Program-made: the position numbers and the translations under genes
Shown: positions 2,047-24,241 of the stretch, one piece after another
Position numbering within the stretch: the stretch's first letter is position 1
Layout of the letters: each line of letters starts with the position of its first letter
DNA from: Anaerolineae bacterium
GTDB lineage: Bacteria; Chloroflexota; Anaerolineae; J102
DNA length: 36,710 bases
Direction: 5' to 3'
Assembly: GCA_011371305.1 (NCBI GenBank)
Contig: DRQW01000213.1
Span: 1-36,710 of the forward strand
Notes under the pieces: generated by a model
Told to the model about the DNA's origin: nothing
Database searches by the model: none
What the model saw: only the letters and a program-made list of their open reading frames with translations

Positions 2047-2254
2047 GCCTGTTCCGAAAATAGTGTTAGTAAGCCTGAACCGGGAAACCAGTAGACCGGT
2101 AGACCGGTAGACCAGTAGACCAGTAGACCGGTAGACCGGGTGGGGGAATGCTCGGCCCGGTTTCCTTGGTTTCCTGGTTTCCTGGTATCCCGGGCTACCG
2201 CCACAATGCACAGGCCACCTGCCACCTGCCACTTGCAAACCTGCATGCTTGCAT
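2047..2254. repeat. Composite intergenic repeat: junction terminus + module A (GTAGACCR)6 hairpin + half module B
   Basis: CTGTTCCGAAAATAGTGTTAGTAA, six tandem octamers GTAGACCR (2091-2138), conserved loop, GGTTTCCT-type arm, then GCCACCTGCCACCTGCCACTTGC. Confidence 0.85.
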
Positions 2255-2333
2255 CTGCCGTGGCATGGGATTTTCCAGCCCGCTGGCAATGGCTTGGGCT
2301 CGTACATTTCATCTTCTGTGAACCAACGCGATT

Positions 2334-6591: not shown

Positions 6592-6651
6592 GAGCTTATC
6601 CTGTAAACGGTGGGATCGTATCAAAGCTGGCGGCATGAGTGATGCTTCGTT

Positions 6652-6784
6652 GATACCGATGAAAATGCCTCGCTATGTAGCCCAGGAAACCAGGAAACCA
6701 GGGAAACCGGGCCGATTCGCTCCTCCACCCGGTCTACTGGTCTACCCGGTTTCCCGGTCTACCGAAATCTATTTTCAAAGCAGG
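6652..6784. repeat. Module A repeat bounded by GATACCGATGAAAAT and ATTTTCAAAGCAGG
   Basis: GGAAACCA tandem arm, loop CCGGGCCGATTCGCTCCTCCACCCGG, GGTCTACY arm, ATTTTC terminus overlapping the end of rsmE. Confidence 0.85.
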
Positions 6785-7501: not shown

Positions 7502-7519
7502 GGGATGAGGTTTCAGTGG

Positions 7520-7645
7520 CGGTTCGCCGATAATGTTCGCAGCTACGGACGAAAATGAGGACACGGATTCACACGGCCTGTGGTCACAGATTTTTCGAAT
7601 TATCCGTGTTTTTCTGTGTTCATCCGTGTTCTATTTTCGGAACAG
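7520..7645. repeat. Module C repeat bounded by GAAAAT and ATTTTCGGAACAG
   Basis: Near-identical by eye to 21443-21539 (shared run TCCGTGTTTTTCTGTGTTCATCCGTGTTCTATTTTC). Confidence 0.85.
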
Positions 7646-7650
7646 CGCGT

Positions 7651-8559
7651 TTATCTGTGGGCGGGCCGGGCCGCCAGCGCAACCCAATCCCCCTGGGTCA
7701 TCGTCTCGATAACCTCCAGGCCCGCCGCTTTCAGAGCCAGGTCCACCACCTCGCGGCGTTGCTGGATGATGCCCGAAAGGATGAGGACGCCGTCGGGTGC
7801 GAGGCGCTGCGCCAGGTCTTCATGGAGCAGCATGTGGGCGATGACATCGGCCAGGATATTGACCAGCACCAGGTCATACCGGCCTGTGTCGATCACCGAT
7901 GCCACCAGCAGGGTGATCTTGTTTCGCACCTCGTTCAGGCGGGCGTTGACCTCAGCCGTGCGCACAGCTTCCGGGTCGATATCTGTGGCAATGACCCGGC
8001 TCGCGCCCAGCTTCACCGCGGCGATGGCCAGGATGCCCGATCCCGTGCCGACATCCAGGACCACGGAACGGGGCCGAAGGTAGCGTTCCAACAGGCGTAG
8101 AGCCAGTTGGGTGGATGGATGGGTGCCCGTGCCAAAGGCCATGCCCGGGTCCAGGCGCACGACCACATCACCCGGCTGGGTGGCTGGCTCCTCCCACGAC
8201 GGGGTGACGACGATGTGGTCACCGATGCGCAGGGGGCGATAATGCCGCTTCCAGGCCTCGGCCCAGTCCTCCGTGGCCAGTCGTCGTACCCGAGGCTCGC
8301 CGTAGAAATCCGCGAACGCGTGCGGCGGACGTTCGCGCATCAGCTTTTCCAGCAGATGGGCGTTTTCGGGGGTATCGGTCAGATAGCCCCGCACGATGGT
8401 CTGGGCCTGATGGCTTTCGCCATAGGGGCCAAACCCGCTCACCTCCACCACGACGCCGCCATGAAACAGGGGGTTCAGCCACGCCACCGCGGCCTGCACC
8501 GGCTCCGATTCGGGGTCGGCCGTGGCGACAGGGAGGGTGAATTCCAGGAGGTCGGGCAT
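7651..8559 (-). CDS. prmA: Ribosomal protein L11 methyltransferase
   Basis: LDPGMAFGTGTHPSTQLALRLLE, VLDVGTGSGILAIAAVKLGA, LVNILADVI motifs typical of PrmA. Confidence 0.95.
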   Translation of the reverse strand: MPDLLEFTLPVATADPESEPVQAAVAWLNPLFHGGVVVEVSGFGPYGESHQAQTIVRGYLTDTPENAHLLEKLMRERPPHAFADFYGEPRVRRLATEDWAEAWKRHYRPLRIGDHIVVTPSWEEPATQPGDVVVRLDPGMAFGTGTHPSTQLALRLLERYLRPRSVVLDVGTGSGILAIAAVKLGASRVIATDIDPEAVRTAEVNARLNEVRNKITLLVASVIDTGRYDLVLVNILADVIAHMLLHEDLAQRLAPDGVLILSGIIQQRREVVDLALKAAGLEVIETMTQGDWVALAARPAHR

Positions 8560-8591
8560 CGAAGCAATTATCCGTATCTAGCCGGCGCTTT

Positions 8592-9740
8592 TTAGAGCCC
8601 CAGGGCCTCGCGCATGCGCTCGAAGAAACCACCGTGCTCGTTGCGGTGCTCCACGGGCATGGGTTCCAGGGTCTCGGCCAGGCGATAGAATAACTCTTTC
8701 TGCTCCTCGGTCAGTTCCGATTGCTTGGGGATGTGCACATCCACGGTGATGAGCATATCGCCACGGCCACCGCCCCGCAGATGGGGCACGCCCAGCCCCC
8801 GCAAGCGCAAGACCTTGCCCGGCTGTGTGCCCGGGGGGATTTTCACCAGCTTGGGGCCGTCCAGGGTGGGGATCTCCACTTCGGCGCCCAGGACGGCCTG
8901 GGCGATGTTGATGGGCAGTTCCAGCAGGATGTCGTCATCCACCCGCTGGAATAGCTTGTGGGGCTTGACCGAGATGAACACATACAGGTTGCCGGGCTGG
9001 CCGCCCCGCTTGCCTGGTTCGCCCTCGCCCTGCAGCCGGATGCGTGTGCCATCCTGCACCCCGGCGGGGATCTTCACCCGCAGGCGGCGGGTCACTTCCA
9101 CCTCGCCCGAGCCGTGGCATTCCCGACAAGGGGTGGTCACCACCTCGCCCGTGCCTTTGCAACGGGGACAGGTGCTCACATTCACAAACGTACCGAAGAT
9201 GGTTTGCTGGCGTTGGCGCACCTGGCCCATGCCATTGCATGTGGGGCAGCGCATGGGCTGGGTGCCCGGCTCCGCGCCCGTGCCCTGACAACGGGGGCAG
9301 GTCTCATGGCGGGTGACCTCGATCTCCTTTTCGGTGCCCATCACCGCTTCTTCGAATTCAATGGTCAGATCGACGCGGATATCCGCGCCGCGCGCGGGCC
9401 CCTGACGACGCCCACCACGACCGAAACCGAAGCCGGTGCCGAAGATCTCCTCGAAGATATCGCCGATATCGGTGAAACCGCCAAAGCCCGGGCCATAGCC
9501 GCCCGCGGCCCCTGTGCCCGAAACACCGGCATGGCCATAGCGGTCGTAACGGGCGCGCTTTTGGGGATCGCCCAGCACTTCGTAGGCCTCATTGATTTCC
9601 TTGATACGGGCGTCCGCGTCCGGGCCTTTGTAGATGTCGGGATGATACTGCTTGACCAGTCGGCGATAGGCGCGTTTGATTTCATCGGCCGAAGCCGTGC
9701 GAGAAACGCCTAAGACCTCATAATAATCTCGTTTTGCCAT
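8592..9740 (-). CDS. dnaJ: Chaperone protein DnaJ
   Basis: J-domain with HPD ([14 protein letters not shown]), G/F region, four CxxCxGxG zinc repeats, C-terminal substrate-binding domain. Confidence 0.97.
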
Positions 9741-10127: not shown

Positions 10128-10292
10128 CTCACGCAAAGACGCAAAGTCGCTAAGCAAGTTTGCAAGTGGCAAGTGGCAGGTGGCCTGCGCAACGTGACTT
10201 GCCGCCTGCTACCTGCCACTTGCTACCTGCCACCTGCTACCTGCATACCTGATTCCCTTGGCGTCTTGGCGTGAGATCAATTTTCAAAGCAA
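10128..10292. repeat. Module E (ACGCAAAG) enclosing module B (TGGCARG heptamers), ATTTTCAAAGCA terminus
   Basis: CTCACGCAAAGACGCAAAG pairs with CTTGGCGTCTTGGCGTGAG; nested B hairpin with loop CTGCGCAACGTGACTT. Confidence 0.85.
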
Positions 10293-14989: not shown

Positions 14990-15140
14990 GCTCACGCCAA
15001 GGCATCAACGCAAAGGGAATCAGGTATGCAGGTGGCAAGGGGCAGGTAGCAGGTGGCAGGTGGTAAGTCACGTTGCGCAGGCCACCTGCCCCTTGCTACT
15101 TGCAAACTTGCATACTTGCAAACCTGCTTCGTTGCGAAGC
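14990..15140. repeat. Module E/B nested repeat
   Basis: CTCACGCCAAGGCATCAACGCAAAG, B arms, loop AAGTCACGTTGCGCAG (reverse complement of the loop at 10186-10200). Confidence 0.75.
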
Positions 15141-19206: not shown

Positions 19207-19424
19207 GGAGGGGTGTGGGAAATGCGCGCGACGTGGGCGAGTCGAGAGTTTATGATACCCATTGTTTTTCAGATCGCCAAACCCCATGCCGGGGAAACCA
19301 GAATCGCGCCGCGCAGAGGATATCCTGATGAGCTGAGAAGAGAGCCCCGTTGGTACAAAATGTCCGCCATCAAAGGTCAGGATCAACGCATCGCACGTTA
19401 AAACTCGCCGCAGATAACGTGGAT

Positions 19425-19750
19425 GAAGCGGATTTCCGCGGATTTTTCAAAAGGATGCCATCTTTTTCCCTAAAAATCCGTGTTGATCCGTCGCATCATC
19501 ATCATCCATGGCGAATTGAAACGCACGTTACCCACAAAAATCACGCTAAATTGGTGATAACTTCATAACAGTCCGACGGCGGGCCACCCCGCGCCGATAC
19601 GGATGAAAATGGCGGGCTGTGCAGCCCCGTAAACCAGTAAACCAGGAAACCCGGAAACCAGGGAAACCGGGCCAATCTGCTTACCTTCCCGGTCTACTGG
19701 TCTACCGGTTTCCCGGTTTTCCGGTTTCCCAAATGCTATTTTCGGAACAG
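19425..19750. repeat. Composite repeat: degenerate C, D hairpin, module A, ATTTTCGGAACAG terminus
   Basis: D: GTCCGACGGCGGGCCACCCCGCGCCGATACGGATGAAAAT; A with GGAAACC/GGTCTACC arms; ends CTATTTTCGGAACAG 3 nt from a stop codon. Confidence 0.8.
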
Positions 19751-19753
19751 GCT

Positions 19754-20845
19754 CTAGGGGGATGTCTTTTCATAGATCCACGGCTCCGCCGGCCGCAGCA
19801 GGCCCACCATGATATTCTCCCGGACCTGGTTCACCTCAGCCCTAAGCCCCTGACTGACCCGGGTTTCAAATCGATGATAGGGTGCGAGGGCGACGCCATC
19901 GTTGTGGAGATCGGCCACATAGTCTTCCCCGCCCCGGAAGGAGCCACCTGCAACCGCGGCCACGGTTTGGAAGACGGCCTGGTCTGTGTTCTTCATGACC
20001 GAGGTGAGAACGACGTTGCCGTATTCAGGAAAGGTCTCGTACCAATCCACGATGGTGCCGATGAACATGCGATTTTCCTCTTGCGCGGCCCGGGCGCTGC
20101 CTTTGGCGGCATCCTTGGCCACCGCGAAAATGACATCGCATCCCTGGGCGAAGAATTTTTTCGCAATCTGGTAACCTTCCTCCTCCGAGGTGCTATCTTC
20201 CAGAAACACCCCCGACTTCGCATACACATCCCAGCCGAGGATATCCAGATCGACGCCGTTTTGGCGTCGGTAATAATCGGCCCCATTGACAAACCCGGTC
20301 ATAAAATCGGTGACCACGGGCGTATCGGCCGCGCCATAGGTGCACACCACCCCGGTCTTGCTCATGCCACCGGCCAGATACCCGGCCATATAACTCACCC
20401 CCACCACATCGAAGACAATGCCCCGCACATTGGGCCCGTTGGAAGAAGCATCCACCATCGCGAACATCGTATCGGGGTGTGCCTTCGCGGCCGCGGCCGT
20501 TGCGTCCGCCATCTCCTGGCCGATGGTGATGATTAAATCGGTATCTTGGGCCAACAAAGCTTCGATCCCCGAGGCGAAATCAGCCTCGGTGGCACTCTCG
20601 GCATAACGCGCGTCGATGGGGAACAAATTCCCCGCCCGCTCAATACCCTTCCAGGCCAGTCGGGTGAAGAATTTCTCCTCGATGCCACCAATAGCCGTGA
20701 CCAATCCCACGGAAAAAGGTTCAGGATTGAGGGCTTGGGGAACCGGGGTGGGCGTGAATTGCGGTTGGGCTTCGGAGGAACTGCAAGCTGCCAGCACGAT
20801 GGCCAGCAAGCCAGCCAGGATGATCAGCGTCGATTTCTTAAGCAT
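19754..20845 (-). CDS. BMP family ABC transporter substrate-binding lipoprotein
   Basis: Lipobox LLAIVLAACSSSEA; VGLVTAIGGIEEKFFTRLAWKGIERA, GIVFDVVGVSYMAGYLAGGMSKTG typical of the BmpA/Med family. Confidence 0.88.
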   Translation of the reverse strand: MLKKSTLIILAGLLAIVLAACSSSEAQPQFTPTPVPQALNPEPFSVGLVTAIGGIEEKFFTRLAWKGIERAGNLFPIDARYAESATEADFASGIEALLAQDTDLIITIGQEMADATAAAAKAHPDTMFAMVDASSNGPNVRGIVFDVVGVSYMAGYLAGGMSKTGVVCTYGAADTPVVTDFMTGFVNGADYYRRQNGVDLDILGWDVYAKSGVFLEDSTSEEEGYQIAKKFFAQGCDVIFAVAKDAAKGSARAAQEENRMFIGTIVDWYETFPEYGNVVLTSVMKNTDQAVFQTVAAVAGGSFRGGEDYVADLHNDGVALAPYHRFETRVSQGLRAEVNQVRENIMVGLLRPAEPWIYEKTSP

Positions 20846-20956: not shown

Positions 20957-21075
20957 CCGTGATAGGGGTTTGGGGTATGCATTGGCTTGATTTTGGTTGG
21001 ATTTGATGCATCCCGCGGGCAGTCCCTCTTGTCGGGACCATTACGATTTTTTGCCAGGAGTGTATTGCCATTATA

Positions 21076-21539
21076 CTGTTCTGAAAATAACGTTAGTAAA
21101 CCGGGAAACCGGTAGACCAGTAGACCGGGAGGGTGAGCAAATCGGCCCGGTTTCCCTGGTTTCCTGGTTTACTGGTGTACAGGAATACCGGACTACCGCC
21201 CACGATTTTCGTCCGTATCGACGGCGGGCGAACCCGCGGCGGATACCGATGAAAATCTCACGCAGAGGCTCAAAGACTGCCCAAGCAAGTTTGCAAGTTT
21301 GCAAGTAGCAGGTGGTAGGTGGACTGCGCAGCTTGACTTGCCACTTGCCACCTGCACACCTTCTTCCCTTTGCGTCTTAGCGACTTTGCGTGAGATCGAT
21401 TTTCAAAGCAGGCGCCACGAGCCATGGCTCGCCGATACCGATGAAAGACGAGGACACGGATTGACACGGCTATCGGTCACAGTTTTTTTGAATTATCCGT
21501 GTTTTTCTGTGTTCATCCGTGTTCTATTTTCATAGCAGG
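21076..21539. repeat. Composite array A-D-E/B-D-C joined at GAAAAT/ATTTTC junctions
   Basis: Junctions at ~21082-21087, 21205-21210, 21251-21256, 21399-21404, 21443 (GAAAGA variant), 21526-21531. Confidence 0.88.
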
Positions 21540-24057: not shown

Positions 24058-24241
24058 CGTGAAACGTGATGCGTGATGCGTGAAACGTGAGGACTTACGC
24101 ATCACGGAATCGGCTTCCCGCGCCAACCTGGCCGCGAGGCGTTTTCATCGGTATCGCCGCGGGCTCGCCCGCCATCGGACTGCTTTGAAAACCCAACACG
24201 GATGAACACGGAAGACAGGGGTAATTGAAAAAAGGCTGTTT
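24058..24241. repeat. Composite repeat: module F (GTGATGC/GTGAAAC heptamers), D hairpin, partial C
   Basis: GCGTGAAACGTGATGCGTGATGCGTGAAACGTGA; GTTTTCATCGGTATCGCCGCGGGCTCGCCCGCCATCGGACTGCTTTGAAAAC; ACACGGATGAACACGG. Confidence 0.75.

What the first reader, a model, noticed from the sequence alone, without database searches (positions are those of the whole stretch)
21076..21539. Composite repeat array built from interchangeable hairpin modules joined at GAAAAT/ATTTTC junctions
Seen directly: order A(21076-21210)-D(21205-21256)-E/B(21251-21404)-D(21399-21446)-C(21443-21539). Adjacent modules share the 6-bp joint, so each module is bounded by GAAAAT...ATTTTC as a short terminal inverted repeat. 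The same modules occur alone or in other combinations at 2047, 6652, 7520, 10128, 14990, 19425, 24058 and 31318. This looks like a modular repeat system spreading by insertion at, or recombination through, a common junction. Heptamer-based STRR repeats of heterocystous cyanobacteria and REP/BIME elements are the nearest known analogies, but the shared-joint architecture is not one I can assign to a named family. No mobilising enzyme is visible here, so any mobility would be in trans.
Basis: partly seen in the sequence, partly recalled or inferred. Interest (0 to 1): 0.85.

Follow-up and report, generated by a model that had tools for sequence, protein, structure and literature searches.

The report
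Mix-and-match mobile hairpin repeats
This uncultured Anaerolineae bacterium carries well over a hundred copies of a tiny genome repeat made of a fixed hairpin start and end plus one of several interchangeable folded inserts; it inserts right after a short AACAG/AGCAG target and stacks into arrays, and the enzyme that moves it was not found.

Summary
The modules are dispersed across the whole MAG: the joint GATACCGATGAAAAT occurs 124 times with at most 1 mismatch, against 0 control hits, and it recurs in all nine species searched in the genus. The architecture needs correcting. The repeating unit is [left hairpin D]-GATACCGATGAAAAT-[payload]-CTATTTTCNNARCAG. GAAAAT/ATTTTC closes the payload stem and is where modules reassort. 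The insertion boundary lies 7 nt further out, directly after ARCAG.

Five blocks in three species sit inside a separate MITE (H) at the same nucleotide, CATAACAG|(G/A)(C/T)TC, carrying different payloads; one lies in this window (19572-19750). Left and right ARCAG copies are uncorrelated (no target duplication), and each inserted unit recreates the target, which explains the arrays. Near-identical payloads occur with different D hairpins (96% vs 71% identity), which shows reassortment. Copies are up to 97% identical to those of a species whose genes are only 67-82% identical, so the units are recently mobile. Orthologous sites are empty or hold other units.

Best reading: a new composite variant of non-autonomous miniature elements with IS200/IS605-like target logic. 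The mover is unidentified. Y1 transposases exist in the genus, but those examined are flanked by another hairpin family.

The parts
21076..21210 (-). Unit 1, payload A (octamer palindrome) on the minus strand; its right end NNARCAG is read here as CTGTTCTGAAAAT (21076-21088), its left joint at 21205-21210
   Evidence: hairpin z -2.9
21205..21256 (.). D hairpin shared by unit 1 (-) and unit 2 (+); both ends are GATACNGAYGAAAAT joints
   Evidence: stem covariation across copies of D
21251..21411 (+). Unit 2 payload E/B (octamer stem E with heptamer stem B nested in it), ending in right end ATTTTCAAAGCAG (21399-21411)
   Evidence: hairpin z -4.0
21412..21448 (+). D hairpin of unit 3 (GCGCCACGAGCCATGGCTCGCC) and its imperfect joint GATACCGATGAAAGA
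21449..21538 (+). Unit 3 payload C (ATCCGTGT decamer palindrome) and right end ATTTTCATAGCAG (21526-21538)
   Evidence: hairpin z -2.3
19572..19750 (+). Complete unit (Db hairpin + payload A' + CTATTTTCGGAACAG) inserted inside the right TIR of MITE H: CTTCATAACAG|unit|GCTCTAG
19342..19571 (+). MITE H (separate family, TIR about CTAGAGSCTGTTATGNACTT); its right tail GCTCTAG is displaced to 19751-19757
6628..6783 (+). Single unit D + A' + CTATTTTCAAAGCAG between a pterin-binding-enzyme gene and an RNA methyltransferase gene; no unit there in G003, a K/F-type unit in G007
7517..7645 (+). Single unit with degenerate D and payload C; no unit there in G003, G008 or G002
10128..10287 (+). E/B module with right joint only; a K/F-type unit sits at the orthologous site in G007
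14990..15127 (.). E/B-type module without either joint; the site is empty in G003 (23 bp versus 222 bp)
2049..2276 (-). A-type unit with right end CTGTTCCGAAAATAG fused to half of a B module
24143..24194 (-). D hairpin with fragments of F-type (GTGATGCGTGA) and C-type payload on its sides

Best explanation
The array is a stack of non-autonomous miniature mobile units of about 130-240 bp. Each unit has a constant frame and one exchangeable cargo. The frame is a left hairpin D beginning directly after the target, the joint GATACCGATGAAAAT, and a right end CTATTTTCNNARCAG. The cargo is a long palindrome built from short degenerate oligomer repeats (A, E/B, C, K with F or G nested in it, I), closed by GAAAAT...ATTTTC. 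Shown: a unit integrates directly 3' of a pre-existing ARCAG with no target duplication, and its own 3' terminal ARCAG becomes a new target, so units stack head to tail. Shown: D, cargo and right end reassort at the joints. Inferred: movement goes through a single-stranded or circular intermediate recognised by its hairpins and cut after ARCAG, by an enzyme acting in trans with IS200/IS605-like (HUH) target logic. Inferred: reassortment happens by recombination or template switching between folded copies at GAAAAT/ATTTTC. The enzyme was not identified, and no host function is claimed.
For: Copy number and genus-wide spread. Fixed unit boundaries against unique flanks. Pre-existing target: empty MITE H copies read GATAAGTTCATAACAG|GCTCTAG, and filled ones CATAACAG|unit(s)|(G/A)(C/T)TC(T/A)A in this window, L028, L387 (G007), L390 and L388 (G004), with different payloads at the same nucleotide. 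Target consensus in 109 lone left flanks (selected for CAG): A at -5 81%, R at -4 88%. No target duplication: the R base left and right agrees in 20 of 43 lone units versus 18.4 by shuffle, p 0.35. D stem covaries: A-T 52 / C-G 26 of 104 at columns 9-18, 80% paired versus 48% expected. Combinatorial modules; payload 96% identical with D only 71% identical. Recent spread: unit at L191:3547-3758 is 92-97% identical to many G004 copies, while orthologous gene segments of the same stretch are 67-82%. Empty orthologous regions: G003 at 6652, 7520, 14990 and the array itself; G002 and G008 at L191:3404.
Against: No enzyme was found in this incomplete MAG, and the Y1 genes inspected in relatives are not flanked by these units. 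An IS200-type guide tetranucleotide complementary to ARCAG is not visible beside the hairpins (reading). D alone does not fold better than shuffles. In a fraction of lone units the left flank lacks CAG. Intergenic divergence between species blurs exact junctions except in the H insertions.
Confidence: 0.62

Rival explanations
1. The units are a REP/REPIN family moved by a genus RAYT (Y1_Tnp).
For: Y1_Tnp is present in 7 of 9 genus members, absent only from the two least complete MAGs. Hairpins, intergenic position and high copy number fit.
Against: The Y1 genes inspected are flanked by another hairpin family (GAGTTCACTCGG / GTCGCCGGAGGGCGACC); units lie near only a few of 19 loci, roughly what their density predicts. 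No GTAG/GTGG foot is seen, and the units are 130-240 bp with long cargo.
Confidence: 0.15
2. The units are MITEs of a DDE transposase, perhaps the one that moves MITE H, whose TIR core CTGTTATGAA resembles the unit's right end.
For: The unit's right end read in reverse, CTGYTATGAAAATAG, resembles the H TIR CTGTTATGNACTT; units insert within that TIR.
Against: The left end of the unit has no matching inverted repeat (D starts GCACC, TCCGAC or GCGCC); no target duplication.
Confidence: 0.15
3. The units are gene-less cassettes inserted by a site-specific recombinase (tyrosine or IS110-type) at a short core, an integron-like array.
For: Direct-repeat core CAG at both junctions and head-to-tail arrays in which each unit ends with the site.
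Against: Left and right cores differ beyond CAG; units are dispersed over the genome rather than held at one platform; no recombinase was sought or linked.
Confidence: 0.1
4. No transposition: the mosaic arises by replication template switching and recombination among palindromes through GAAAAT/ATTTTC microhomology.
For: Reassortment of D, payload and right end; nested and half modules.
Against: Clean insertions at one nucleotide of MITE H in five places with different payloads; more than 100 dispersed sites with a target consensus.
Confidence: 0.12
5. Assembly or binning artefact.
For: The MAG is fragmented (213 contigs), and many contigs end inside units.
Against: Units lie inside contigs with syntenic genes on both sides and recur in eight other genomes of the genus.
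Confidence: 0.02

Closest known systems
REPINs / REP-BIME elements with RAYT (TnpA-REP)
   Same: Short hairpin-forming, intergenic, high-copy, non-autonomous, clustered (PMC3116915, PMC6006769)
   Different: Asymmetric D frame plus a large exchangeable palindromic cargo; ARCAG rather than a GTAG/GTGG foot; not flanking the genus Y1 genes inspected
IS200/IS605 ends and their non-autonomous derivatives
   Same: Insertion 3' of a short fixed target flanking the left end; the right end terminates with the same kind of short sequence; subterminal hairpins (rules as in PMC6006769)
   Different: No tnpA linked, no visible guide sequence complementary to ARCAG, cargo hairpins of changing type
BrickBuilt MITE of Porphyromonas gingivalis (minisatellite inside a MITE, PMC4596501)
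   Same: Constant leader and tail around short tandem repeats, intergenic, lineage-restricted
   Different: One repeat type only; here several unrelated oligomer palindromes share one frame, and modules reassort
STRR / small dispersed repeats of Nostoc (from memory)
   Same: Degenerate heptamer-like tandem repeats and nesting of small repeats
   Different: Here the oligomers form inverted arms inside a defined frame with a defined insertion target
Integron cassette arrays (from memory)
   Same: Head-to-tail stacking in which each unit ends with the next acceptor site
   Different: No genes, no attI platform, dispersed, no shared core beyond CAG

Membership tests
REPIN / RAYT system | GTAG/GTGG-type tetranucleotide at the foot of the hairpin | tested here: not met
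   The sequence flanking and starting D is ARCAG followed by GCACC or TCCGAC
REPIN / RAYT system | Copies flank the cognate Y1 transposase gene | tested here: not met
   Y1 loci of the genus carry a different flanking hairpin family; this MAG has no Y1_Tnp but is 72% complete
IS200/IS605-derived non-autonomous element | Insertion 3' of a short fixed target without target duplication | tested here: met
IS200/IS605-derived non-autonomous element | Right end terminates in a short sequence like the target | tested here: met
   ...ATTTTCNNARCAG at right ends
IS200/IS605-derived non-autonomous element | Subterminal hairpins at both ends | tested here: inconclusive
   Payload hairpins significant; D supported by covariation but not by folding energy
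IS200/IS605-derived non-autonomous element | Guide tetranucleotide pairing with the cleavage site | tested here: inconclusive
   No CTGY guide seen by eye beside D or the payload foot; non-canonical pairing not testable
IS200/IS605-derived non-autonomous element | Moved by a TnpA Y1 enzyme | not testable with these tools
   No biochemical link possible
DDE-transposase MITE | Terminal inverted repeats | tested here: not met
   Left end D and right end CTATTTTCNNARCAG are not inverted copies
DDE-transposase MITE | Target site duplication | tested here: not met
   In lone units left/right motif positions are uncorrelated except weakly at one position (-6, p 0.04)
Integron cassette | Integron integrase and attI platform | not tested
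   Not sought; units are dispersed genome-wide

The most novel reading that the evidence does not exclude
A cassette-type miniature element: a constant hairpin frame that inserts after ARCAG, apparently via single-stranded DNA and an unknown enzyme, and that repeatedly exchanges unrelated palindromic cargos at fixed GAAAAT/ATTTTC joints, forming self-extending arrays shared between species.
Probability: 0.35. Interest if true: 0.78.

Novelty: new variant of a known kind. Interest (0 to 1): 0.6.

Why it matters
Where composite bacterial repeat arrays come from is usually obscure. Here the anatomy gives a testable rule: insert after ARCAG, recreate ARCAG, reassort at GAAAAT/ATTTTC. The rule explains the arrays, and an internal control, repeated insertion at one nucleotide of another MITE, supports it. 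The system could lead to an unrecognised trans-acting mobilising enzyme in Anaerolineae. It also shows how short oligomer palindromes, of a type also seen outside the frame in viral-collection contigs, can be carried by a mobile frame.

Tried and rejected
Rfam scan of the window: only a tRNA. Target-duplication model: rejected by left/right motif comparison. Y1_Tnp in own genome: none; in relatives: present but flanked by other hairpins. Of two scripts for extracting Y1 proteins one failed and one picked several wrong frames, so any Y1 subfamily correlation with copy number is only anecdotal. Modules C and E/B in plasmids: no match. The C oligomer pattern was absent from 201 sampled genomes, but that exact pattern also misses the C copy in this window, so the result is weak; in viral contigs the related oligomer occurs in 19 stretches outside any D frame. 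A second phylum could not be searched. Exact empty-site junctions by all-against-all joining of flanks were mostly blurred by divergence or hit other units; the H insertions were the clean case. A sigma-70 scan around the array found nothing above chance. Joint hits outside Chloroflexota (9 records) are about what chance predicts for that degenerate 19-mer (my estimate about 7).

Full report
WHAT WAS CHECKED. The array at 21076-21539 reads A-D-E/B-D-C as described. It lies between divergent genes for a PnrA-like (Bmp) substrate-binding protein and a ZnuA-like protein. The window is contig C213 of a 2.17-Mb, 213-contig, 72%-complete MAG. Related named genomes holding the same joint are Anaerolineae (Chloroflexota) MAGs; contig lengths identify G007 as JALXCB01.

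GENOME-WIDE COPIES. C, E/B and A give 21, 51 and 42 matches in the MAG. The joint GATACCGATGAAAAT gives 124 places at one mismatch (control 0) and 234 at two (reversed-pattern control 1). All nine genus members have it (12 to 209 copies); two other genera of the family have 35 and 17; otherwise it is at background in the class.

ANATOMY. Lining up all joints shows one unit: unique DNA ending in ARCAG, then D (22 or 24 nt to GATAC in most copies), then GATACCGATGAAAAT, payload, and CTATTTTCNNARCAG, then unique DNA or the next D. 81 of 117 joints have the right end within 300 bp. D comes in distinct sequence classes whose stem is maintained by paired changes: at columns 9-18, A-T in 52 and C-G in 26 of 104 distinct copies, 80% paired against 48% expected; in the 24-nt class columns 10-19 pair in 75% against 59%. 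Payloads fold as hairpins; in A and E/B the fold is closed by GAAAAT/ATTTTC. Payloads are nested: B inside E; F or G inside K.

INSERTION SITE. In 109 lone left flanks (selected for CAG) the preceding bases are A at -5 in 81% and R at -4 in 88%. The left copy could be target or element; MITE H decides. H (window about 19342-19571, many copies in G004 and G007) normally ends ...GATAAGTTCATAACAGGCTCTAG. In this window the unit 19572-19750 lies between CTTCATAACAG and GCTCTAG. The same arrangement occurs at L028 (same MAG), L387 (G007), L390 (two units) and L388 (a longer block) in G004, with payloads A', K/G, K/F, I-type plus K/F, and K/F plus other modules; two more have the left side only before the contig ends. 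So ARCAG pre-exists on the left and the unit brings its own on the right. Left and right copies are not correlated at the variable R position (20 of 43 versus 18.4 expected, p 0.35), which argues against a target duplication. Because the unit ends in the target, further units can insert directly behind it; 34 of 66 classified units in this MAG have another unit's right end on their left.

REASSORTMENT. Each common payload class occurs with both D classes and with several right-end variants. Two E-type units have payloads 96% identical but D hairpins 71% identical; several other pairs show the same. The joints are therefore places of exchange. Mechanism of exchange: inference.

MOBILITY. The unit at L191:3547-3758 matches many G004 copies at 92-97%, while orthologous gene segments of the same stretch are 67-82% identical. 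This is recent spread across species; bin contamination is an alternative but the copies lie inside gene-bearing contigs. At orthologous intergenic sites units are missing in some species (G003 at 6652, 7520, 14990 and at the array itself; G002 and G008 at L191:3404) or differ in payload: 6652 A' versus K/F, 10128 E/B versus K/F, 19425 A' versus I, L191:7212 three different payloads in three species. Because D also differs at L191:7212, repeated insertion at the same target is at least as likely as payload swapping in place.

ENZYME. No Y1_Tnp in this MAG; 7 of 9 genus members have one or more, but the Y1 genes read are embedded in another hairpin family, and D units near them are few. The target logic (fixed short target on the left, same sequence at the right terminus, no duplication, hairpins) is that described for IS200/IS605 elements (PMC6006769), but membership is not shown: no guide sequence was recognised and no enzyme is linked.

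PLACE AMONG KNOWN THINGS. Nearest are REPINs (PMC3116915), IS200/IS605 ends, and the BrickBuilt MITE with an internal minisatellite (PMC4596501). None of the papers consulted describes a fixed frame with interchangeable palindromic cargo; they were read in part (abstracts and passages), and the literature search was limited to open-licence papers and eight completed queries.

Noticed in passing
window 19342-19571 plus 19751-19757; many copies in G004 and G007: MITE H, about 230 bp with TIR near CTAGAGSCTGTTATGNACTT; repeatedly used as a landing site by the D units. Its transposase was not sought.
   Followed up: partly
L329, L322, L333, L335 (around Y1_Tnp genes): Y1 (RAYT-like) genes of the genus sit among another hairpin family (GAGTTCACTCGG, GTCGCCGGAGGGCGACC), probably a separate REP system; tandem duplicate in G004.
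   Followed up: partly
L161:2016-2727, L166:1834-2889 versus window 8559-8599: G007 and G008 carry inserts of 0.7-1.0 kb at the same intergenic site, apparently holding toxin-antitoxin-like genes (reading by eye), absent from this window.
   Followed up: no
window 21056-21076: The array's outer edge abuts a TATACT-like box upstream of znuA; compared with G003 (L170) the array may lie in the znuA leader. Not confirmed by the promoter scan.
   Followed up: partly
L347-L365, L339-L346 (viral-collection contigs): Tandem ATCCGTGTTNATC and GCARGTGG oligomers like payloads C and B occur in unrelated contigs without the D frame.
   Followed up: partly
G000 loci L027, L028, L040, L066, L078, L097, L194: Unit right ends often lie directly against ribosome-binding-site-like GAGG and start codons.
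   Followed up: no
L161, L163 (G007): Another repeat with GGGTGCGTCC...GGGACGCACCC termini is frequent in G007.
   Followed up: no
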